The translations under genes and the position numbers were made by a program. A stretch of 64,000 nt of DNA, taken from positions 1 to 64,000 of the forward strand of contig JASGLT010000001.1 of the NCBI GenBank assembly GCA_030156945.1. Reading direction: 5' to 3'. This document shows positions 49,510-60,175 of the stretch, piece after piece. Source of the DNA: Thermococcaceae archaeon (GTDB lineage: Archaea; Methanobacteriota_B; Thermococci; Thermococcales; Thermococcaceae). The notes beneath the pieces were generated by a model. It did no database searches. It was given only the letters and a program-made list of their open reading frames with translations, and had not been told where the DNA came from. Each line of letters opens with the position of its first letter. Position 1 is the stretch's first letter.

Positions 49510-52500
49510 TCAAGAGGAGTTTTGAGGCATGAAAAGCAGCCCTGCAACGATGTGTGGCTTTGTCCCTTCCACCTCTCTTTTTTTGGCTTCTTCTTGGAGG
49601 GTTCTGTGGCGGGTAGCGATGCCAAAACGGTCTATCAGTTCCTTGCAACGCTCGATTATTTCTTCCGTGCGGGTGTTTTTGTGGATTTTTGCCTTCAGCA
49701 ATGCATCTTTAAACGGCTCGTGATTTAGATAGCCCCACTGAACAAGATCCAATAATTTTGATATCACTTCCCTTTCTCCGGGCGTTTTGGTTCTTTCCAG
49801 CCTGCTCTGGAGCCTCTGAAGTATCAACCTGATCTTTGGAGGATACTTGGAGGGCCGTCTTCTGCTGTATTCGAGGGTGCTCCCACTGATCCTGAGGAGC
49901 TTTTTAAAGTCCCTTAAGGCGATTCCTGCAACCTCGCGGTAGAGCTCCATGGCTTTTTCGTCATTGTACGGCAGTGTTTCCTCTGACAATCCTGTTTTGT
50001 CAATCAACTGTTCTATTGGGATGTTTTGCTTCTTCCATTCTCCATCTACACGCCTGTAGATCATGTATTGCGATGTAGCACCGTTGGAGAGCACAAAGAA
50101 GGCGTAATGCTCTCTGGCGTCTGAAAGGGCAATGCTCCTCATTGAATACCTTTTTTTCAGTTCTTCAAACTTCTCCTTGTGGGACTCCATGTATTCCCTC
50201 ACAAGTTTCTCCGCAAATGTTGTGACCGAGAGGAGGGACTTATCGGCTTCAAGTTCAATCTCATTCAAGTCGCTGGTTCTGTAAATCGCCTCTATCGCTG
50301 ACGGGTTCCACTCTTCAGACTCTTCAAGGATTTTGCCGTCGGCACCAAGGGCATTGTTGAACTCTGCAATTCTCCGTCTGACCTTTTCAACCAAACCCAA
50401 ATTCTCCTCAAGCCTGGTCTCGGGGAAGAAGTTGTAGACAAGGATTTCGTCATGCTCCGTTCCTATCCTGTCCACCCTTCCTATGCGCTGTATGAGCTTT
50501 ATGGGGGCCCAGTGGAGGTCATAATTAACGACGACGTTTGCATCCTGAAGGTTGAGGCCTTCGCTGAGGACGTCCGTGGAGATAAGGACGTCGAGCTCGT
50601 CCTCCCTGTCTATGTACTCTTCATAGTTGTTAGCCCTCGGTGCAAACCTCCTTATCCTCTCGGCAATTCCCTTTGTATTTGAACTTACGTAAGCCATTCT
50701 GCGTTTGAGGTTCTCATCCTCAATAATCTTCTGGAGCCCGTCGTAGACCCACTGAACTGTCTCCTCAAACTCGCTGAATACCAGTATCTTCTTCCCCTTC
50801 CTCCAGAGCCTCTGGATTTCTTCAGCGAGGGCCTTCAGTTTTGGATCCCTTTCGGGGTTCTTTTGGAGATACTCCTTTAAAGGACGCAGAGCCGCTTCCA
50901 TGGCCCTGAGTTTTTCCAAATCGTAGCGTAGGTCATCCAGAAGTTCACTCTTCCTAAAGGCACCGGCCTTATATTGTGGAGCCTTTGAGGCGGTGTATTC
51001 TTTAATGAATTCTTCAACTTCCTCATCGCTAAGGACTCTAGGTGTCCTGCTTCCATTTATCTTTCCAAGGAGAACGTCATCAAACTCATCTCCAGCTGGG
51101 ATGAATCTGCGCTCCACGAACTTGATAAAATTCTCAGTCTTTATTATGTCCCTTTTCAGGGTCTGGTACATGGCATACCATGAACTCTCAAGGCGTTTGA
51201 GGTAGAGAATCCTCATTAAGCCTCTCAGGTTTTTCCCGATGGAGGACAGACTTCTGTAGGGCTCGGCATCTCTGTAGTGGGGGATCACGTAGTCGTAGAG
51301 GGCAAACCTCGCGTATTTCATTGAGCTTATACCTGCGAGGAAAAGGGTGTATATGTCATCCGGTTTTATCGAGGAGTCAAAGGCTATCCTTGAGACCAGT
51401 TCCTTGGGGACGAACTCAATTGGATAAACTTCCGAAATCTTGTACGTCAGGACTGAAAGCTTTCTCCTGGGGAAGCATAATGGTTTTTTACGTTTTTTTA
51501 CTTTTATACAGTTGTCCTCCCCCCCGTAGAGGCGCAGGATATCGTATCTGGTTCTCCTTATCATGATCTCTCTCAGAACGTACGATGGGTCTATCTCCCC
51601 TTTTTCGATGGCTTTCACGAGTTCGTCCCACGTTTGAGGCGTTATGGGGAATGGGTGCCTTCTCTCCGGCAGGAAAAGGCGAATTTGGTTGATTATGTCC
51701 CTGTACTGCTTTCTGTAGGGGGTGGCGGTGAGAAGAATGACTCTCTTCCCGGTGAGGAGCTCCTGAAGGTTCCTGTAGGACTTTGTGTTCGTATTGGTAT
51801 AGTGGTGAGCTTCATCCACCAAAACAGTCTCCACACTCCTGATGTATTTTTTCATTTCCTCATACTTTTCGGGAGAAAGCTCCCTGCGGGGCAATAAGCC
51901 CGCGGAAAACACCCTTCCAGGAATGCGGAATTCGTTGAGGAGGCCCTCCCAGTACCTAACCAATTCGGGAGGGGCTATAACCGCGACTTCTTTCGAGCGA
52001 CCGTGGAGGAACTCGAAGAGGGAAAAGTGCTCCAGTAATGCAAGACCTATGTAGCTCTTTCCAAGACCGACAACGTCACTTATGAGAACTCCACCATATT
52101 TGTTCACTATCGCTATGGCCCTTCTGACGGCGTCCCTCTGGAAATCATAGAGAGTCTCATCCAGCTTCCTCAGGAGAAACTTTGAGTCCTCTTCCAGCAC
52201 CTCCCTGTAAAGCTCGTAGAGGCCCCGGATTAAGACTTCATAGGGCAGTGGGAGGTTTCCGGGAACCTGGTTTGCCCAGCTCCTCTCAATCACTTCAAGG
52301 AGCTTGGGGTTAAATGGTACTGCCTCCTCCCATATCTCGTCGTACCACTCTTTAAGGCTCTCAAAGTGAGTTGACTGAACGAGCGCGTTTAGCTCGGTAT
52401 TGCCGGAGAATCCTGCGAGAGTGAAGTTGCTTGAGCCCACCAGCCCAATTCTTGTAACCGAACCCCTTGAAGGGTAGAACAGGTAAGCCTTGGCGTGCAT

Positions 52501-52983
52501 GAACTCCTTCACGTAGACGCGAATCTCAAGATTCCCGTCCCTGAGCCATTTCAGCAGTTTTCGGAGGAACTCCTCGTTTTCCAGAGTCTGTTCCATGTAA
52601 TTTGCGTTGGCTTCGATATCTTTTCCCTGCTCGTCCAAGTTATGTTTCTCGCTTTCGGTTTTTTCCTTCAATCTCTTCAGGGTTTCAAGGGAGTGGTAAA
52701 CCATGCTCAACTGCTCGTATGTCTCCCTGTTGGTCTGGTTCCCAATGACTATGCGCATTTTTCCACCGCGGGAGAAGAACTCTTCAAGCTCATCTCTTAT
52801 CTCCTTTAACCCGCTGATGAACAGAAAGCCAACGGCAACATCTATCTGGCTGTAGTCTCCGGATGTTAATATTTCTCTAAGGACGTCTATCAGCGTTATC
52901 CCCTTTCTCTCGCCGTTCACTTCTCTAATCCTGTTATCCACAAGCCCGTATTTGTCAAGGAGGGAGATTGCGGACTCAGCCAT
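49510..52983 (-). CDS. PLD nuclease-SNF2 helicase fusion protein, probable defence effector
   Basis: 1157 residues. A phospholipase-D-type nuclease domain (about 30-215) has the catalytic MHAKAYLF (His163, Lys165) and GSSNFTLAGFSGNTELN. A SNF2/RapA-like helicase follows: DVVGLGKS (303-310), VLVDEAHHY (DEAH 390-393), LLTATP (417-422), and the C-terminal lobe with ILVFSEFEETVQWV, STDVLSEGLNLQDANVVVNYD and LIQRIGRVDRIG. The last 250 residues are helical. It overlaps the AbiEii gene by 8 bases, so it is in the AbiE operon. The methyltransferase upstream may be its protecting partner. Confidence 0.92.
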   Translation of the reverse strand: MAESAISLLDKYGLVDNRIREVNGERKGITLIDVLREILTSGDYSQIDVAVGFLFISGLKEIRDELEEFFSRGGKMRIVIGNQTNRETYEQLSMVYHSLETLKRLKEKTESEKHNLDEQGKDIEANANYMEQTLENEEFLRKLLKWLRDGNLEIRVYVKEFMHAKAYLFYPSRGSVTRIGLVGSSNFTLAGFSGNTELNALVQSTHFESLKEWYDEIWEEAVPFNPKLLEVIERSWANQVPGNLPLPYEVLIRGLYELYREVLEEDSKFLLRKLDETLYDFQRDAVRRAIAIVNKYGGVLISDVVGLGKSYIGLALLEHFSLFEFLHGRSKEVAVIAPPELVRYWEGLLNEFRIPGRVFSAGLLPRRELSPEKYEEMKKYIRSVETVLVDEAHHYTNTNTKSYRNLQELLTGKRVILLTATPYRKQYRDIINQIRLFLPERRHPFPITPQTWDELVKAIEKGEIDPSYVLREIMIRRTRYDILRLYGGEDNCIKVKKRKKPLCFPRRKLSVLTYKISEVYPIEFVPKELVSRIAFDSSIKPDDIYTLFLAGISSMKYARFALYDYVIPHYRDAEPYRSLSSIGKNLRGLMRILYLKRLESSWYAMYQTLKRDIIKTENFIKFVERRFIPAGDEFDDVLLGKINGSRTPRVLSDEEVEEFIKEYTASKAPQYKAGAFRKSELLDDLRYDLEKLRAMEAALRPLKEYLQKNPERDPKLKALAEEIQRLWRKGKKILVFSEFEETVQWVYDGLQKIIEDENLKRRMAYVSSNTKGIAERIRRFAPRANNYEEYIDREDELDVLISTDVLSEGLNLQDANVVVNYDLHWAPIKLIQRIGRVDRIGTEHDEILVYNFFPETRLEENLGLVEKVRRRIAEFNNALGADGKILEESEEWNPSAIEAIYRTSDLNEIELEADKSLLSVTTFAEKLVREYMESHKEKFEELKKRYSMRSIALSDAREHYAFFVLSNGATSQYMIYRRVDGEWKKQNIPIEQLIDKTGLSEETLPYNDEKAMELYREVAGIALRDFKKLLRISGSTLEYSRRRPSKYPPKIRLILQRLQSRLERTKTPGEREVISKLLDLVQWGYLNHEPFKDALLKAKIHKNTRTEEIIERCKELIDRFGIATRHRTLQEEAKKREVEGTKPHIVAGLLFMPQNSS

Positions 52984-53992
52984 CAGTTTTCACCTCGATC
53001 AATGTCATCAAATCACCAACAATAGTCTTTAACTCATCCTTTAAATCCCCAACAAAGTTCAAAAATTCTTCCTCTTTGAATGGTTCGACGATTAGGCTGA
53101 TATCCCTATCTATCTCGGCCTCAACGTTTTCGAGGAAGGAACCGTTGTCAATTGACTGTAAAGTGGCCCTCAGATGTTCCTTTGCCAACGAACCCAAGGC
53201 CAAGTAGTTTCTTATCTTGGCAACTATTTTCTCCTTGTATTTTGAGATTTCAAGCCCATGTTGGTTGAGTTTGTACAAATCGTAGAGATCCCTGAGTTTA
53301 AACTCCTTTCTGGTTAAGAGTGCTCTAACTTTCTCTATCAGGATTTCCCTGTCTGAGTATGCCGGAAGACTAAGGGGATAATAGTTGCCAAGGAATTCTA
53401 TGTACTTTTCATATTCCTTTGAAGTGAGCGTAATCCCCTTCCAGGACAATAATGTGTTCGCTTTCAGTGTTTTAGGCTTAAAAGCCAGTTTTTCTGCGTA
53501 GTTTACCTCGATTTTTATCTTTTCCCCGAGCGGAGAGTACAACACTATTTCCCTGAACCAGCCCGGGCCAATCCTGAAACTAAAATACCTGTGGTTATTG
53601 AAGTCACTATGGCCCGAGTACTGGAACTCAAGGCCAAGGTCCTTCGCGACACACTTCAGGACTTCTGCTATTCTCCCCGTCTCCTCGTTCAGAAACTGTC
53701 TGAGTTGGCTCCTGCTCAGTTCCCTAAGCTTGTCACTGTCCCGATATGCGAAATCCAAGTCCCTGCTGAAGCGGTAGTAACCAAGGTGACACTTCACAAG
53801 GCATGTGCCACCTTTGAAGACGTAGTTCTCCTTAAACTGCGGATCCTTCTCAAGCTCTTTCAAAATCGTGTGGATTACGTAGTCCCATTCAACGAGATCA
53901 ATGGATTTTACCCCTGTTTTTCTGGAAACGAACCTTGCAAAACCCCTTCTTTCGTTCCTGCGGATTTCCATCAGGAGTGAATTACCTTCCAT
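52976..53992 (-). CDS. AbiEii/AbiGii-type nucleotidyltransferase toxin
   Basis: 338 residues. The DUF1814 motif FKGGTCLVKCHLGYYRFSRDLDFAYRD (GGT, then RxSxDLDF) is the nucleotidyltransferase core; EILIEKVRALLTRKEFKLRDLYDLYKL carries the later conserved Lys and RDLxDL. AbiEii toxins transfer nucleotides to tRNA or use GTP. It overlaps the AbiEi gene by 11 bases and the helicase gene by 8. Confidence 0.9.
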   Translation of the reverse strand: MEGNSLLMEIRRNERRGFARFVSRKTGVKSIDLVEWDYVIHTILKELEKDPQFKENYVFKGGTCLVKCHLGYYRFSRDLDFAYRDSDKLRELSRSQLRQFLNEETGRIAEVLKCVAKDLGLEFQYSGHSDFNNHRYFSFRIGPGWFREIVLYSPLGEKIKIEVNYAEKLAFKPKTLKANTLLSWKGITLTSKEYEKYIEFLGNYYPLSLPAYSDREILIEKVRALLTRKEFKLRDLYDLYKLNQHGLEISKYKEKIVAKIRNYLALGSLAKEHLRATLQSIDNGSFLENVEAEIDRDISLIVEPFKEEEFLNFVGDLKDELKTIVGDLMTLIEVKTDG

Positions 53993-54605
53993 CCTCTATC
54001 ACCTTCCTCACTGACACTGGATACCTCTCGGAATATCGTTTGAGCTTTTCTCTGTCAGCGTACTCCGAGTATTCCCTCCAAATCCTCAGGGCAAGTTCTC
54101 TGGAAACAGTGCCGTAGCTGGAGAAGTAGAGAAAATCAAGGAGGGTCTTTTCAATGTCAGAGAGCTTCAACGAGTCCCTTACGATCATTCCAAAATCGAA
54201 AATATTCCGCCTGCTCCTGATTATTCTCACGGGTGTTCCATTCACGTTTATGGCTTTTGGTCTGGTTACCTTATCGTTGATAACGAAAACGGTTGTGTAT
54301 GTCTCGTGGGTGAGGCCGTTGAGTACCAAGGCAGTAAACAGGCCGAAGTACCAGTTTTCCGTTATTCTGCTCATCCCGAGAGAGATGAGTTTGTAGATTG
54401 ATGGGGAACCTCCTGAGGAAAATTCTATTGGAGTTTTCACGTAGTAAAGGCCTCTAAGGATCCTAATGACGTAGCCGTACTGGATGAGGTAGTTCACGAG
54501 GTAGTCAACGTCCTCGTTGAAGTACGACGCGAGTTTTTCGAGCTCTTCACGGATTATGGCCTTGCCGCCATATGTCGAGATGAGCAGCTGAATGATCGGC
54601 TTCAT
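53982..54605 (-). CDS. AbiEi-like antitoxin/transcriptional repressor
   Basis: 207 residues. An N-terminal winged helix (AIIREELEKLASYFNEDVDYLVNYLIQYGYVIRILRGLYYV in parts) is followed by the AbiEi-like body (WYFGLFTALVLNGLTHETYTTVFVIND). LSDIEKTLLDFLYF is typical of the antitoxin C domain. It should repress the operon by binding the inverted repeats upstream. ATG 54605 (MKPIIQLL) is chosen; the frame opens seven codons earlier inside the operator. Confidence 0.82.
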   Translation of the reverse strand: MKPIIQLLISTYGGKAIIREELEKLASYFNEDVDYLVNYLIQYGYVIRILRGLYYVKTPIEFSSGGSPSIYKLISLGMSRITENWYFGLFTALVLNGLTHETYTTVFVINDKVTRPKAINVNGTPVRIIRSRRNIFDFGMIVRDSLKLSDIEKTLLDFLYFSSYGTVSRELALRIWREYSEYADREKLKRYSERYPVSVRKVIEDGR

Positions 54606-54616
54606 GATCTTAATTT

Positions 54617-54654
54617 TAACTAACAACCCATAAAAAGTTAGTGGTTGTTAGTTA
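54617..54654 (-). promoter_or_regulatory. Operator/promoter of the AbiE-helicase operon
   Basis: TAACTAACAACC (54617-54628) and GGTTGTTAGTTA (54643-54654) are perfect 12-base inverted repeats; the spacer holds TATA-like CTTTTTATG (minus strand) and an additional GTTAGT. AbiEi proteins are known to autorepress through inverted repeats, so this is the expected target. Confidence 0.75.
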
Positions 54655-54748: not shown

Positions 54749-55399
54749 TTAGGTTTCCTTGCCAATTTCTATTTTGGATTCCCTTAGAAAGTTCTGAGGA
54801 GAATCAGGCACTATGTTAAAGAGTTTAGATATGGGTGGTTTTTCTTTTCTTCGTTTCTTGCCTTTTGACTTTTGTTTGTTCAGCTGAATTATCTCACTAT
54901 CATTAGTTATGAACCAGTTACATCCATTACAAACCGCAGTGGTTAGTAAAATGGCATCATGCGGGCGTAGTCCATAATCCAAAACTAATTTTGGATACAC
55001 TTCATCATTTACATTGTCATCAATCACGACAATAAAAGATTTGAGTTCATTAAGATGACTCCGAACTGTTTCCCAAAATAGTGACTTCTCGTCTTCAGTA
55101 AGGTCATTTTTGCTTCTTAACTTTGACCATAATGTGATGGGTATCCCAGAACGATAGAGCTTGAGCGATAGCACTTCATTGTAAAGAACATGATAAACCT
55201 CACCTATGGCAAGTGTGGATGTTACAGCTTCATACATGTCATCTTCTTTTAAAGCTTCGATGAGCACATAGGAGTAGCTAAATGTCCTAAATCTTTCGCT
55301 TAAGATTTTATCATCTCTCAGTTCTTCCAACCTTTCGACTGAGGAGCTTATCAGTATCCAGTTAGCAATAACATTTGCATCAATGAAGACTTTTGACAT
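54749..55399 (-). CDS. PIN-domain protein in the defence island
   Basis: 216 residues, longer than VapC. VFIDANVIANWILISSS holds the first active-site Asp; RPHDAILLTTAVCNGCNWFITNDSEIIQL the later ones. The tail (about 180-216) has a Lys-rich run (KSKGKKRRKEK). The gene is visibly more AT-rich than the core genes, which suggests transfer. It follows a 55-codon gene by 13 bases. Confidence 0.85.
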   Translation of the reverse strand: MSKVFIDANVIANWILISSSVERLEELRDDKILSERFRTFSYSYVLIEALKEDDMYEAVTSTLAIGEVYHVLYNEVLSLKLYRSGIPITLWSKLRSKNDLTEDEKSLFWETVRSHLNELKSFIVVIDDNVNDEVYPKLVLDYGLRPHDAILLTTAVCNGCNWFITNDSEIIQLNKQKSKGKKRRKEKPPISKLFNIVPDSPQNFLRESKIEIGKET

Positions 55400-55412
55400 T
55401 GTCTAACACCAG

Positions 55413-55580
55413 TCAGCCAAATATGATGTCCCATAGAGATTTCTTCTTTTTCTTTTTGGGCGGATGCCATAAGCCCTTTATCTGCCCAGCACGTCCGCTC
55501 TTTGTAGTCCTCTGACGAAGTTCATAATATTTTCCAGTAACAGGATTGTAGATCCTCTTCTTTTTCTTTGACGATGCCAT
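55413..55580 (-). CDS. Small very basic protein upstream of the PIN gene
   Basis: 55 residues: MASSKKKKRIYNPVTGKYYE, then a basic RQRTTKSGRAGQIKGLWHPP followed by six lysines and SLWDIIFG. I do not recognise a family. The frame extends 17 codons upstream, but ATG 55580 is more likely. Its place directly ahead of a PIN gene is that of an antitoxin; its basic composition would suit nucleic-acid binding. Confidence 0.6.
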   Translation of the reverse strand: MASSKKKKRIYNPVTGKYYELRQRTTKSGRAGQIKGLWHPPKKKKKKSLWDIIFG

Positions 55581-55686
55581 ATTTATCCCCATGAAATAGT
55601 CGGTTTTTGATTTATTTAAGGCTTTTTCCATATCTTGTTCAAGACACCGATGGTGTAGGGAAGAAATTGAAAGGCATCCATCGGCC

Positions 55687-58600
55687 CTACCTCCTCTTCG
55701 AAGACGTCCTCGCCTTCACAAGCCTCGCCTTCACGAGCTCGACAACCGCCCTGTAAACCTCAAGCTGCTCTTCCTCCGTAAGGCCAAGCGCCTCAAAGAT
55801 AACCCTGTCAAGTTCCCTCCTGTCCGGCATGACCTTGTCGAGGGATACATCATCAGGGTTGATGTTGCTGAAGTCCTTGTTGGGCTTCGGAAGGCCGAGC
55901 TCTTCAAATGTTGGTAGGATCTCTCGAATACTTAACTTGGGAGCGATGGTATTTAATATCTTCATAGCATCTGTTGAAAGTACTAGGGGGTTGAGTATTA
56001 ATACTTGCTTAGAAACAATGACGTCAATATCTAATGGGCCACCCCCACCCCCTGGAGTTCTAGCTAGCAGTTCTGCAGTAATATGAGTCAGTGTTGAGTT
56101 TAGAATCAAGAAAAGTAATTCATGTTTTTCGTAGTCTACCCCATAGAAGCTTTTGTTTAGGTAAACTAGACTTGGATTATGAGCAATGAAGAACCTTGAT
56201 TGATGGCGCTCTGGAAATGCCACAGGGCTGTCGATTCCAGGTGTTAAATCATACCAAAACTTTCTAGCTGCACATGTTGGTCTATCATGATATTCCCTAC
56301 TTTCTCCCCATTCAATGTATTTCAACGCGTGAACCTTGCCCTGTCTCCTGAGCTCTTCCTTCGAAAGATTGCAGAGGAACACTCTAAGCTTAAGGTCTTC
56401 CGGCCTAATCCTGTAGGTCTTTATCTCCTGCGGGCTCTTAACAACAGGCTTCAAAAACTCCTCCTCGATATATCCATCCCATCCCGCCTTATTCTTGACG
56501 GCAACCAACCCTTCCTCAGGCTTGTGAACCCTTCCACAAACGGGACAGACGGGCCACTCTATCGGGTTCTTTATTGGCGTCAAATAAAAGAACTCGTTCG
56601 CTCCTGTCTTGAACCCACTTCTAACCTCGGCAATCTCCCCAAGCCTCACCAGCTTGCCCTTTCCTTTATCAAGGATAACATAGAATATCCTTGGAGCCCT
56701 TATGAGTATCCCGCCCCACTTCATACCGCTGTACTCGCCGAAGATGTTGTAGGAGCCGAGCAGGAGGTTCTTTGTACCCATCTCAAGCCCGCCCATCTTT
56801 GCGAGCTCTACAGCTTTGACGCTCCTCACCCTGATGTAATCGTCCTCGTAGGAGTATACTTTTCCTCCGAAGACTTCGACTTCCTTAACTTTTCCGGCAT
56901 AACATTCGAGCATCTTTTCTATTATTTCACGGCTCAGTTCATCAAAGCTCCTCTTTAGGAGGACAAAGTTCACACAACCCTCATCAACGGTGTTAAACAG
57001 CTCTTTGGGTTTTCTAGTTAGCACGGTGATTACGGTATTTACATCGGCCTGCTCAAAAGACCTTGTCGTGTAGTCAATAATCCTCTTCAAGTTCGTGAAC
57101 CTCAGGAAGAACTCCTGCAGAGATGTTCCATAATCAACATCAAGCCATGAGTTGGAGGTAATGAACACTAGCGCTCCTTTGGGGTTGAGCAGGTTGACAC
57201 CTTGGATGAAGAAATAAACATACAAATCGCTCCTCTTGTTCAGCTTCATCTCGTGCTCAAACTTCTCCTTGATTATTGTCTTCATATGCTCGATTATCTT
57301 CTCCTTGTATTCCTTCTTTAATCTATCCTGTTCCTTTTTGGGAAGCATCTGGAACTCAGCCAAATCGTAGTACTCCGGGTAGATCTTCTCCTGCCGCACG
57401 TAGGGCGGATTTGCTATTACTATGTCAAAGCCCTTCTTTTTGAGCATCACATCGGGGAAGTCAAGCTCCCAGATGAAGGGCGGCTTTTCCAGGGCCGAAT
57501 AGTCCTGGTTTGACACAGCTTCAAGGAGCAGTCTGGTCTCCTTCTTCTCCTTTGCCTGTAGCTCCTCCTGAAGGGCATTCTCAAGGAACTCCTGAAGGGC
57601 ATCCCACTTGGCTTTCTCTATGTCCCTGAGCGTTACAGGCTTGCCTTCTATCTTCTCGCCCATGAAGTACTTCCTTACGAGCTCCTTGTAGCTTACTATT
57701 GCCTCGCTCGCACCCTTCTTTGCCCATAGGAGCTTGAGGCCCTCACGGAACTTGGCGAGGGGAATCTCGATAACCTTTTTCCTCCCGCCGATCTTGAGAA
57801 CGAAGTGGGGAGGCGCCAGAGAGTCTCCAACCGTTAGCTTCGTTTCAAGATTGGGCAGTATCGGCTCGTTAGGAATTCTCTCCTCTTCCTCGATGAGGGC
57901 CAGCCAGAGCCTGAGCTTGGCAACCCTTATCGCCCACTCTTTGATGTCAACGCCGTAGATGTTGTCGCGTATTATCTCAAGCTTCTTCTTGTAGGTGATC
58001 TTGGAGTCTTCCGTGAGCTTTTCATAGAGTTCCATTAGGAGGTGGTACATGCCGACGAGAAAGGCACCGCTTCCCGCGGCGGGATCAACAACCTTGACCT
58101 CGTTGAGGGCCTTTTCAATTTCCTCAATATCTCCCCAGGTGAGCAAATTTGGATCCCAGTCGTAGGATGGTGTGAAGACAAACTTTCTCAAAATCTCTTT
58201 GTCGAGCTTGGTGTTTCTTTCGAGGTACTCATAAATCCCCATCCTGCACATGAAGTCCACTTCGCTTCTCGGCGTGTAGAATATCCCCGAAGCTCTTCTC
58301 TCCTCTTCCTCACCGGCCTTCTCCTCCTCCGCGATGAGGGACTCGTAGATTTTACCGAGCATTGCCGGATCAACGGCCACCTCGACCTCATATGGAGTCT
58401 CTTCGGTGACAGTGAAGTTGTAGGTCTCAAAGAACCCAAATATAAGGTTCTTAATGATCTCATCATCAATGTCTTGGATCACTTCATCCAGAGCCACATT
58501 TTCCATTTTGACGTGAGCAAAAAGACCTCCATTAAAGTATGGGACAAGCAGGAAGGGATAGAATATCTTATCCGGGATCCGTGGTTCAAAACGTCTCTCC

Positions 58601-59610
58601 TGACGAGGTTTATTCATGACATTCACAAAGAGATTTCTAAGGACATCCTTGTAAAATCCAGAAACCTCACCGGTTTCCTTTAATTCTTCATAGACTTCCC
58701 ATAACCATGCCACAAACCTCTTCCGGTTTAGAAGTGCTGCTTTATCAAACTCGTTTTTAGCAAATTTCTCGTTGACCATCCACCCCTTCTTCTGGAGGAA
58801 GTAGACGAACATGAGCCTGTTGAAGAAGGTGTGAGCAAAAGTCTTGGCGGCCCTCTCAAGGAAAATCTCCTCGGCTCTGTCCCTTGGAACAGTTACGGAC
58901 TCATCGACGGCTGAGAGGTAGTCCTTAGGACAGGCTTCTCTCAGCGCCTCTCCATAGTTGGCCTTTATCCAGTCCTTGAGCTTCAGGTAGTACCTCTTGT
59001 AATCCTCAAAGAACTGCTCGGTTAGGGGCTGCACAAGCATGTATTCGTTTATCAGTGCCCTGATCTCACTTGCGGGAGGTACTTTATTTTTCTTCTCAAT
59101 TTCTTCAGCAACCTGCGCAAGGTTCCAAGCAAGGGTTCTCAATCTCTTATCCTCGGGGTCAATTGTGTAAATATTAAGCTTCGTGCTCTCTAGGTGCCTC
59201 TGATAAACGGGAACGATGAGCTTCCAGAACTTACGCTCCTCACCAGGCGACTTCTTAACGTCGAGAACGAGAAGGAAGTTTGCAAAGTCAAGCCCGAGAG
59301 AACCCGTAAAGTGCAACAGGTTCTTTATTAATTTCTGACGGTACCTCACAGTGTCGCTCCATGTCTCACCGTATATTACAAAGAACTCGGCCCCTTCTTC
59401 GGGCTCGGTGATGGCAATGACCCTCAGAACCCCGGTGTTTTCTTCAACAAAACCATCGAGGTAATTTCTCTCTATGTCCTCATCTTCATAAATAAATCCC
59501 CAGAACCTTGTAAAAATCTCGCGGAAGGTTCTAACGGCCTCTTCAGTTTTAGTCTCCTTTTCGAGCCTCTCAAGAATAGTCCTGATTTCTTTGGCTTTAT
59601 TCTTCACCAT
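55687..59610 (-). CDS. Eco57I-like N6-adenine DNA methyltransferase, probable defence component
   Basis: 1307 residues. Motif I VVDPAAGSGAF (508-518) and motif IV IVIANPPYV (NPPY 734-737) identify an N6-adenine methylase of the gamma class. The N-terminal 450 residues are helical with no clear PD-(D/E)xK nuclease motif that I can see. The C-terminal 550 residues would include the target recognition domain; they contain a CPVCG knuckle near 1045 and a Gly-rich RTPGGGGGPLDID loop. Size and layout resemble type IIG enzymes, BREX PglX and DISARM DrmMI. Confidence 0.9.
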   Translation of the reverse strand: MVKNKAKEIRTILERLEKETKTEEAVRTFREIFTRFWGFIYEDEDIERNYLDGFVEENTGVLRVIAITEPEEGAEFFVIYGETWSDTVRYRQKLIKNLLHFTGSLGLDFANFLLVLDVKKSPGEERKFWKLIVPVYQRHLESTKLNIYTIDPEDKRLRTLAWNLAQVAEEIEKKNKVPPASEIRALINEYMLVQPLTEQFFEDYKRYYLKLKDWIKANYGEALREACPKDYLSAVDESVTVPRDRAEEIFLERAAKTFAHTFFNRLMFVYFLQKKGWMVNEKFAKNEFDKAALLNRKRFVAWLWEVYEELKETGEVSGFYKDVLRNLFVNVMNKPRQERRFEPRIPDKIFYPFLLVPYFNGGLFAHVKMENVALDEVIQDIDDEIIKNLIFGFFETYNFTVTEETPYEVEVAVDPAMLGKIYESLIAEEEKAGEEEERRASGIFYTPRSEVDFMCRMGIYEYLERNTKLDKEILRKFVFTPSYDWDPNLLTWGDIEEIEKALNEVKVVDPAAGSGAFLVGMYHLLMELYEKLTEDSKITYKKKLEIIRDNIYGVDIKEWAIRVAKLRLWLALIEEEERIPNEPILPNLETKLTVGDSLAPPHFVLKIGGRKKVIEIPLAKFREGLKLLWAKKGASEAIVSYKELVRKYFMGEKIEGKPVTLRDIEKAKWDALQEFLENALQEELQAKEKKETRLLLEAVSNQDYSALEKPPFIWELDFPDVMLKKKGFDIVIANPPYVRQEKIYPEYYDLAEFQMLPKKEQDRLKKEYKEKIIEHMKTIIKEKFEHEMKLNKRSDLYVYFFIQGVNLLNPKGALVFITSNSWLDVDYGTSLQEFFLRFTNLKRIIDYTTRSFEQADVNTVITVLTRKPKELFNTVDEGCVNFVLLKRSFDELSREIIEKMLECYAGKVKEVEVFGGKVYSYEDDYIRVRSVKAVELAKMGGLEMGTKNLLLGSYNIFGEYSGMKWGGILIRAPRIFYVILDKGKGKLVRLGEIAEVRSGFKTGANEFFYLTPIKNPIEWPVCPVCGRVHKPEEGLVAVKNKAGWDGYIEEEFLKPVVKSPQEIKTYRIRPEDLKLRVFLCNLSKEELRRQGKVHALKYIEWGESREYHDRPTCAARKFWYDLTPGIDSPVAFPERHQSRFFIAHNPSLVYLNKSFYGVDYEKHELLFLILNSTLTHITAELLARTPGGGGGPLDIDVIVSKQVLILNPLVLSTDAMKILNTIAPKLSIREILPTFEELGLPKPNKDFSNINPDDVSLDKVMPDRRELDRVIFEALGLTEEEQLEVYRAVVELVKARLVKARTSSKRR

Positions 59611-59743
59611 GGGTATCCCACCCTAGACTTTACCTGGAGAATAATCACCAAGTGAAGTATTTTAGGATTGCGGTGACTATTTATAAAACCAATTTAGGGG
59701 AATTGTTTAGTTCCGTTCGACTATAGAACAGTAGTGAACCTAC
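59611..59743. promoter_or_regulatory. Divergent promoter region of the methyltransferase and EVE genes
   Basis: The minus strand has TTTTATAAATAG (about 59677-59688), a strong TATA box about 70 bases from the methyltransferase start. The EVE gene has no good ribosome site and may be leaderless or expressed from a weak TATA in this stretch. Confidence 0.6.
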
Positions 59744-60175
59744 ATGACCTACTATCTCTGCATTAACAACCGTGCGAACTGGAAGGTGATTAAGGAGAAG
59801 AATGTCTGGGGCGTGCCAAGAAGACACAGGAACACAATCTCCAAAGTCAAGCCCGGTGATGAGCTCGTTATCTACCTCAAGCAGGAGCGTGAAAACAAAG
59901 AAGTGCTCGAACCCAAAATTGTCGGGATTTTTGAAGTCGTAAGTGAGCCCTACGAGGACTCAACGAGAATTTTCAAGAGTCAACCGCATCTCAACGAGGC
60001 CTACCCTCTGAGGGTGAGGATCAAGCCGGTCAAGCTTGGAGAAGTTGACTTCAAGCCGCTCATTCCGAAGCTGAAGTTAATCACGAACAAGAAGAAGTGG
60101 AGCGGCCACTTGATGGGCAAGGCAATGAGGGAAATCCCCGAGGAGGATTACAAGCTTATTGAAAGCTTGCTTTAA
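59744..60175 (+). CDS. EVE-domain protein (UPF0310 type)
   Basis: 143 residues. [51 protein letters not shown] and [21 protein letters not shown] with KWSGHLMG are typical of EVE domains, which bind modified bases. Such proteins are often found with restriction and methylation genes. Divergent from the methyltransferase, it completes the island. Confidence 0.92.

What the first reader, a model, noticed from the sequence alone, without database searches (positions are those of the whole stretch)
54749..55580. A 55-residue Lys-rich protein paired with a 216-residue PIN protein
The small gene ends 13 bases before the PIN gene. Its core (IYNPVTGKYYELRQRTTKSG) is not a known antitoxin family to me. 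Position suggests a new antitoxin-toxin type. A basic antitoxin that shields RNA or binds DNA would be unusual, since PIN antitoxins are often acidic.
Basis: inference. Interest (0 to 1): 0.55.

Follow-up and report, generated by a model that had tools for sequence, protein, structure and literature searches.

The report
Archaeal PIN nuclease with basic partner
A tiny, strongly positively charged protein is always encoded right in front of a particular family of archaeal RNA-cutting enzymes, often inside DNA restriction (anti-virus) operons, so the two probably form an undescribed toxin-and-guard pair that backs up virus defence.

Summary
A 55-residue basic ORF (55413-55580, minus) ends 13 bases before a 216-residue PIN gene (54749-55399, minus). 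The pair is a real, conserved module. In 392 Halobacteriota genomes every PIN of this family (17 of 17 loci, 16 genomes) has the small gene directly upstream; 17 of the 20 strong small-gene hits have the PIN. Relatives occur in Thermococcus, Archaeoglobus, Altiarchaeales, DPANN and Methanomicrobiales. The small protein matches no Pfam, NCBIfam or PHROGs family and no solved structure, and none of my paper searches found its motif. AlphaFold predicts a confident three-strand beta core with a Lys-rich tail. The PIN keeps all four catalytic acids (22 of 22).

First, in at least 11 of 44 loci the pair lies inside or directly beside restriction-modification genes, in separate PIN clades, recalling PrrC in EcoprrI. 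Second, several methanogen PIN genes lack any usual start codon and carry a conserved ATC/ATT behind a Shine-Dalgarno-like site.

Best reading: a toxin-antitoxin-like module whose antidote is basic. But the small protein is far better conserved than the PIN, unlike an antitoxin, so a nucleic-acid-binding partner role is a serious rival. Toxicity is untested.

The parts
55413..55580 (-). Gene for the 55-residue basic protein (P0001); core RIYNPVTGKYYELRQRTTKSGRAGQIKGLW, Lys-rich linker, short C-terminal helix SLWDII
54749..55399 (-). Gene for the 216-residue PIN-domain protein (P0002); catalytic acids D7, E67, D148, D167
   Evidence: VapC-like fold of the family in the model of a relative
55400..55412 (-). 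13-base spacer between the two genes; holds a GGTG (55407-55410) that could serve as Shine-Dalgarno site for the PIN
   Evidence: role inferred
55587..55590 (-). GGGG, possible Shine-Dalgarno site of the small gene, 6 bases before its ATG
   Evidence: role inferred
55612..55619 (-). TTAAATAA, possible archaeal TATA box of the bicistron; similar AT-rich boxes precede the small gene in several other Thermococcus loci
   Evidence: role inferred
55687..59610 (-). Neighbour upstream: 1307-residue type IIG-like restriction-modification protein (Eco57I)
52976..54626 (-). Neighbours downstream: AbiEi (53982-54626) and AbiEii (52976-53992) toxin-antitoxin pair

Best explanation
The pair is a two-gene toxin-antitoxin-like module. 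The downstream gene makes a VapC-like PIN ribonuclease. The upstream gene makes a small basic protein that holds it in check; I propose that its Lys/Arg-rich part sits on the acidic active site, as VapB arginines do in solved VapBC complexes (recalled). The module has its own promoter, and the small protein is made first and in excess; in several methanogens the PIN gene even starts with a weak AUC/AUU codon. The module is repeatedly inserted into restriction-modification operons, where I infer it is a second line of defence: when restriction fails or is disabled, the PIN is freed, cuts RNA and stops growth. Shown: the conserved pair, its order, the catalytic residues, the fold class, the RM setting, the start-codon pattern. 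Inferred: inhibition, toxicity, RNA target, trigger, promoter.
For: PIN never seen without the small gene: 17 of 17 loci among 392 Halobacteriota genomes, profile match ends within about 40 bases. Same order in Thermococcus, Archaeoglobales, DPANN and Methanomicrobiales. Small and PIN distances correlate over 24 pairs (Mantel r 0.734, 0 of 5000 permutations; related sequences inflate this). Catalytic D, E, D, D invariant in 22 of 22. VapC-like fold, best Z 12.7 to a M. tuberculosis TA complex chain and 10.4 to P. horikoshii VapC4. Small gene intact but PIN broken, deleted or absent in 11 loci, never the reverse. RM setting in at least 11 of 44 loci. AUC/AUU start pattern.
Against: The small protein is better conserved than the PIN in 274 of 276 comparisons; known antitoxins usually diverge faster than their toxins (recalled). 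It has no recognised antitoxin domain. The fused AlphaFold model gave the small part only pLDDT about 60, so no complex is supported. The decay asymmetry is weak evidence: the PIN gene is about four times longer, so 8 of 8 broken PINs would occur by chance about one time in six (my arithmetic), and some breaks may be MAG assembly errors. Relatives of the small protein also sit beside HNH and Mrr-type nucleases without a PIN.
Confidence: 0.5

Rival explanations
1. The small protein is not an antitoxin but a nucleic-acid- or ribosome-binding subunit that brings the PIN nuclease to its substrate or activates it. The two form one effector, and control comes from elsewhere.
For: The core RIYNPVTGKYYELRQR..GQIKGLW is nearly frozen while the PIN varies (0.61 against 0.34 mean identity; dN/dS 0.018 against 0.17 between window and G047), as expected if it binds a conserved partner such as RNA or the ribosome. 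It is very basic (24 of 24). Relatives occur beside PIN_3, HNH and Mrr-type nucleases, and as a domain of a longer protein (L130).
Against: Small genes often survive after the PIN has decayed (11 loci), which is odd for a mere accessory subunit. Upstream position and the weak PIN start codon in methanogens suggest that the PIN must be limited.
Confidence: 0.3
2. A PrrC-like arrangement: the RM complex itself keeps the PIN ribonuclease silent, and the small protein is an adaptor between the two or a sensor of RM failure.
For: hsdM-[small-PIN]-hsdS in Thermococcus (4 loci), one Halobacteriota genome (G197) and Methanoregula L093, also between hsdM and hsdS in DPANN G543 with a GmrSD gene; mod-[small-PIN]-res of a type III system in G407. 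These fall in at least three PIN clades (L145/G543 was not in that tree). PrrC lies with hsdMSR and is silenced by it (PMC3506569, passages read).
Against: 33 of 44 examined loci show no RM genes next to the pair within what was seen, so RM cannot be the general regulator. The PIN has no NTPase sensor domain like that of PrrC.
Confidence: 0.15
3. The association is neutral: the pair is a passenger module, and the small protein is a short leader whose translation only couples to the PIN.
For: Spacing is short and often in frame, so translational coupling is plausible.
Against: Strong purifying selection on the small protein, conservation across archaeal lineages, and survival of the small gene without a PIN.
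Confidence: 0.05

Closest known systems
VapBC toxin-antitoxin systems (PIN toxin VapC with AbrB, RHH, HTH or COG2442/COG2880-type antitoxins)
   Same: Bicistronic, small gene upstream, PIN toxin with four catalytic acids and VapC-like fold.
   Different: The partner belongs to no known VapB family in the libraries searched, is strongly basic, mostly beta, has no recognised DNA-binding domain, and evolves more slowly than the PIN. The PIN is 194-240 aa against about 130 for the solved VapCs.
New PIN-associated antitoxin families of Makarova et al. 2009 (PMC2701414, section 9 read)
   Same: Small genes paired with archaeal PIN genes. The paper argues that any small gene in a conserved operon with a known toxin is a likely antitoxin (passage read).
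   Different: The families described there are HTH, AbrB, RHH or MerR-like; none is described as a basic beta mini-protein.
PrrC anticodon nuclease in the EcoprrI type I RM locus (and RloC)
   Same: A ribonuclease gene inside an hsd operon, proposed to act when restriction is disabled (PMC3506569, passages read).
   Different: PIN fold instead of HEPN, no ABC ATPase domain, and a dedicated small partner gene.
HARP / minimal protein-only RNase P (PIN fold)
   Same: PIN domain of similar size; Z about 10 in the structure comparison.
   Different: Not closer than VapCs; patchy in genomes and always paired with the small gene; no PDB sequence match.

Membership tests
VapC-like PIN toxin (PF01850) | Pfam PIN profile above gathering cut-off | tested here: met
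   P0002 E 1.7e-7, 32.3 bits against 23.6; L126 and L011 PINs also above
VapC-like PIN toxin (PF01850) | Four conserved catalytic acids | tested here: met
   D7, E67, D148, D167 invariant in 22 of 22 aligned PINs
VapC-like PIN toxin (PF01850) | VapC fold | tested here: met
   Predicted model of relative L091; top VIA matches are mostly VapC chains, Z 12.7 to about 10. Foldseek alone gave no E <= 0.001
VapBC toxin-antitoxin system | Small partner gene directly adjacent in a conserved bicistron | tested here: met
   17 of 17 PIN loci in 392 Halobacteriota genomes
VapBC toxin-antitoxin system | Antitoxin of a described VapB family (AbrB, RHH, Phd, HTH, COG2442, COG2880) | tested here: not met
   0 of 40 small proteins match any Pfam, NCBIfam or PHROGs family at E <= 0.01
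VapBC toxin-antitoxin system | Partner binds the PIN and blocks its active site | tested here: inconclusive
   Fused AlphaFold model: PIN confident, small part about pLDDT 60; no interface reported
VapBC toxin-antitoxin system | Toxic alone, neutralised by the partner | not testable with these tools
   needs expression experiments
PrrC/EcoprrI-type RM-linked ribonuclease | Ribonuclease gene inside an hsd operon | tested here: met
   At several loci only (G052, G023 with truncated PIN, G016, G033, G197, L093, G543); not in the window, where the neighbour is type IIG-like
PrrC/EcoprrI-type RM-linked ribonuclease | ABC ATPase plus HEPN anticodon nuclease architecture | tested here: not met
   Only a PIN domain is found

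The most novel reading that the evidence does not exclude
The small protein is the founding member of an archaeal family of basic beta mini-proteins that act as universal guards or guides of defence nucleases. The same core pairs with VapC-like PINs, PIN_3 PINs and HNH nucleases, and lies near Mrr-type ones. With PINs it builds an RM-embedded, PrrC-like suicide RNase, whose toxin gene in methanogens is throttled by a conserved AUC/AUU start codon.
Probability: 0.25. Interest if true: 0.75.

Novelty: new variant of a known kind. Interest (0 to 1): 0.57.

Why it matters
PIN genes are abundant in archaea (36 PIN matches in this genome alone), and the PIN toxins described so far are paired with a few antitoxin folds. 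A basic, slowly evolving beta mini-protein as obligate partner would be a new way to control them. Its repeated place inside type I and type III restriction operons gives a testable archaeal parallel to PrrC, for which I found no PIN example in the papers searched. The conserved AUC/AUU starts would be an unusual case of start-codon control of a toxin gene in archaea.

Tried and rejected
Viral and plasmid origin: no relative of the small protein confirmed in IMG/VR or in phage records. One weak unannotated match on a Methanobacterium congolense plasmid (E 0.03). No PIN match in plasmids. The pair is therefore mainly chromosomal, although the PIN_3-linked variant lies beside an archaeal phage-type integrase.

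Known family for the small protein: none in Pfam, NCBIfam or PHROGs (40 members), none for P0001 in PADLOC, none in PDB sequences, none by Foldseek or VIA (absence there does not show a new fold).

Stop-codon readthrough giving a small-PIN fusion: considered because 21 pairs share a frame. Rejected as a general rule because L118, L120 and L127 are in another frame, and in L127 an in-frame stop lies four codons before the conserved ATC.

Diverged small genes before the PINs of G022 and G056 (L062, L063): layout looks alike, but profile comparison is not convincing (hhalign probability 4.4, E 0.009). Left open.

The A5-A2 comparison is biased because A5 contained two sequences of the core type; the independent evidence for the outer relatives is the A2 search (E 8.8e-5 to 2.5e-8).

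Full report
WHAT IS THERE. The window lies in a Thermococcus-like genome (G000, 53 contigs; genus inferred from its relatives). On the minus strand a 55-codon ORF (55413-55580) ends 13 bases before a 216-codon ORF (54749-55399). A possible TATA box (55612-55619) and Shine-Dalgarno site (55587-55590) precede the small gene (inferred), so the pair looks like its own bicistron. Upstream is a 1307-residue type IIG-like RM protein; downstream are AbiEi/AbiEii and a PLD-helicase.

THE PIN. It matches Pfam PIN (E 1.7e-7). In an alignment of 22 relatives the acids D7, E67, D148 and D167 are invariant. No solved structure matches the profile by sequence. The AlphaFold model of a relative (L091, PIN part pLDDT mostly 85-95 with weaker stretches) is VapC-like: the best VIA matches are mostly VapC chains (Z 12.7 for 7vwo_A, 10.4 for P. 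horikoshii VapC4), with a Cas9-associated protein (8wmm_G, Z 11.8) and HARP (about 10) also listed. Foldseek alone was weak (best E 1.3e-3).

THE SMALL PROTEIN. Among 40 relatives R9, N12, P13 and T15 are invariant and I10, Y18, Y19, G32, I34, G36 and W38 nearly so. The window protein is predicted with block pLDDT 92-95 in residues 11-40: three short beta strands, a Lys-rich linker and a short C-terminal helix. It matches no family in Pfam, PHROGs or NCBIfam (0 of 40 members), nothing in PADLOC (P0001 only), no PDB sequence and no PDB fold at Z >= 2 (a limited test). None of six core peptides occurs in the papers held.

DISTRIBUTION AND LINKAGE. Thermococcales: small gene in 12 of 94 genomes. 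In five of these (G000, G047, G052, G016, G033) an intact PIN of this family follows. In G023 the PIN is truncated, and in G029 both genes are broken. In G051 and G057 the small gene lies downstream of a PIN_3-family PIN (PF13470), probably also in G056, whose contig ends there. In G065 and G083, as in G089 (found only with the profile), a variant has no PIN beside it; in G083 and G089 a 290-337 aa protein follows, that of G083 resembling the L079 neighbour. Halobacteriota: profile A2 hits 27 of 392 genomes, 28 matches, 20 of them at E <= 1e-10. The PIN profile A3 hits 17 loci in 16 of 392 genomes at E <= 1e-12. All 17 lie directly behind a small gene (profile match ends within about 40 bases). 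So 17 of 20 strong small hits have the PIN; the other three (G268, G233, G455) are a fusion, a degenerate copy beside a HicB-like gene, and a membrane-protein fusion (HicB-like and membrane by eye). DPANN phylum of G117: 4 of 34 genomes; two with PIN, one with most of the PIN deleted, one with no PIN seen. The scan of one genome per species for 84,980 species gave 30 loci, all archaeal by record title except one short contig in a Thermoanaerobacteraceae MAG.

EVOLUTION. Over 24 pairs the small protein is much better conserved than the PIN (mean identity 0.61 against 0.34; higher in 274 of 276 comparisons), yet the two distance matrices correlate (r 0.734, 0 of 5000 permutations). The window PIN groups with Halobacteriota sequences (L126 61%, L128 53% identical) and apart from the hsd-linked Thermococcus PINs (about 29%), which suggests transfer between lineages. 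Selection: small gene dN 0.015, dS 0.83; PIN dN 0.057, dS 0.34 between window and G047. Small gene intact with PIN broken or mostly deleted: L012, L095 (apparent frameshift), L097, L100, L102, L118, L125, L129 (8); with no PIN seen: L101, L103 (its contig ends shortly after), L146 (3). Both broken: L014. PIN remnant without small gene: L064. Intact PIN without the core small gene: none, except the two diverged PINs L062 and L063, which have a different small ORF in that place. Since the PIN gene is about four times longer, this asymmetry is suggestive only.

RESTRICTION-MODIFICATION SETTING. Of 44 neighbourhoods examined (31, 13; some displays cut, and orphan small genes included), at least 11 have RM genes next to the pair. 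They are Thermococcus G052, G023, G016 and G033 (hsdM before, hsdS after); Halobacteriota G197 (hsdM-small-PIN-hsdS); Methanoregula L093 (hsdM-pair-SIR2-hsdS); L089 and L083 (hsdM upstream, contigs end); DPANN G543 (hsdM-GmrSD-pair-hsdS); G407 (type III mod-pair-res, with a GmrSD gene nearby); and the window (type IIG-like). The RM-linked PINs fall in at least three clades of the tree, so the insertion recurred. Other settings include an Mrr-type endonuclease (L098), HNH (L079) and m5C methylase with Vsr (L100, decayed PIN), and many loci without any visible defence gene.

START CODON. In 36 loci listed, 10 PIN genes (all in methanogen-type loci: L083, L086, L087, L091, L092, L093, L096, L119, L125, L127) have no ATG, GTG or TTG between the last in-frame stop and the catalytic Asp. 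In these 10, and in L088 and L089 which I added after seeing the pattern, the codon six before the motif is ATC (8) or ATT (4), with an SD-like motif 7-9 bases upstream in all 12, while the neighbouring codons vary. The PIN of L125 is otherwise broken. Other loci of this group use TTG, GTG or ATG elsewhere (L084, L090, L094, L095, L098, L118, L120; L124). Starts further down would lose the catalytic Asp. I read this as AUC/AUU initiation; it is not proven.

OUTER RELATIVES. Weak A2 hits (8 of 28 matches, E 8.8e-5 to 2.5e-8) read NPKTH..RIRQRTT.NG.KGQIMG.Y. Four of them (L137, L138, L139, L142; L138 and L139 identical) lie beside HNH-like genes, and L141 beside an Mrr-type gene (the L138 HNH is below Pfam's cut-off, the L137 one was judged by eye). 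The core may therefore be a general partner of nucleases.

INTERPRETATION. A conserved bicistron with a catalytically intact PIN and an obligate small upstream gene fits a toxin-antitoxin module, by the rule stated in PMC2701414. The basic charge is compatible with plugging the acidic PIN site. The strong conservation of the small core points instead to a conserved ligand, so a guide or activator subunit remains a serious rival. The RM setting fits the coupling idea of PMC3506569 (passages read), in which suicide nucleases back up restriction. Papers: PMC2701414 (passages and section 9 read) and PMC3506569 (passages read); all others only as search listings.

Noticed in passing
L083, L086, L087, L091, L092, L093, L096, L119, L125, L127 (also L088, L089), start of the PIN gene: Conserved ATC/ATT six codons before the PIN motif behind a Shine-Dalgarno-like site; 10 of these genes have no canonical start codon, so a start placed further down would cut off the catalytic Asp.
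   Followed up: partly
L136-L142 small ORFs: Shorter relatives of the small protein (NPKTH..RIRQRTT..GQIMG.Y) in Halobacteriota, four of eight weak hits beside HNH-like genes and one beside an Mrr-type endonuclease.
   Followed up: partly
L018, L019 (and probably L016): Variant small gene downstream of a PIN_3-family PIN, next to an archaeal phage-type integrase.
   Followed up: partly
L017/L058, L076 and L079:6977-7876: Uncharacterised 290-337 aa proteins (no Pfam match above cut-off) beside a PIN-less variant of the small gene; in Archaeoglobus L079 a relative follows the small-PIN pair and an HNH gene.
   Followed up: partly
window 49510-54626 and 55687-60175: Defence island: PLD/SNF2 helicase (best PADLOC match HKD+Snf2), AbiEi/AbiEii, type IIG-like RM protein and an EVE-domain gene (59744-60175, plus strand).
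   Followed up: no
L062 and L063, upstream of diverged PIN genes: A different 52-54 residue basic ORF with similar layout (KTVDGRTLVVEYYDDGSWKVV) precedes these PINs; homology to the small protein not established.
   Followed up: partly
L130 / L179:1191-1724: The small core forms the N-terminus of a 177-residue protein of unknown function.
   Followed up: no
G000 whole genome: 36 PIN-domain matches at E <= 0.001 in one genome of 2.08 Mb.
   Followed up: no
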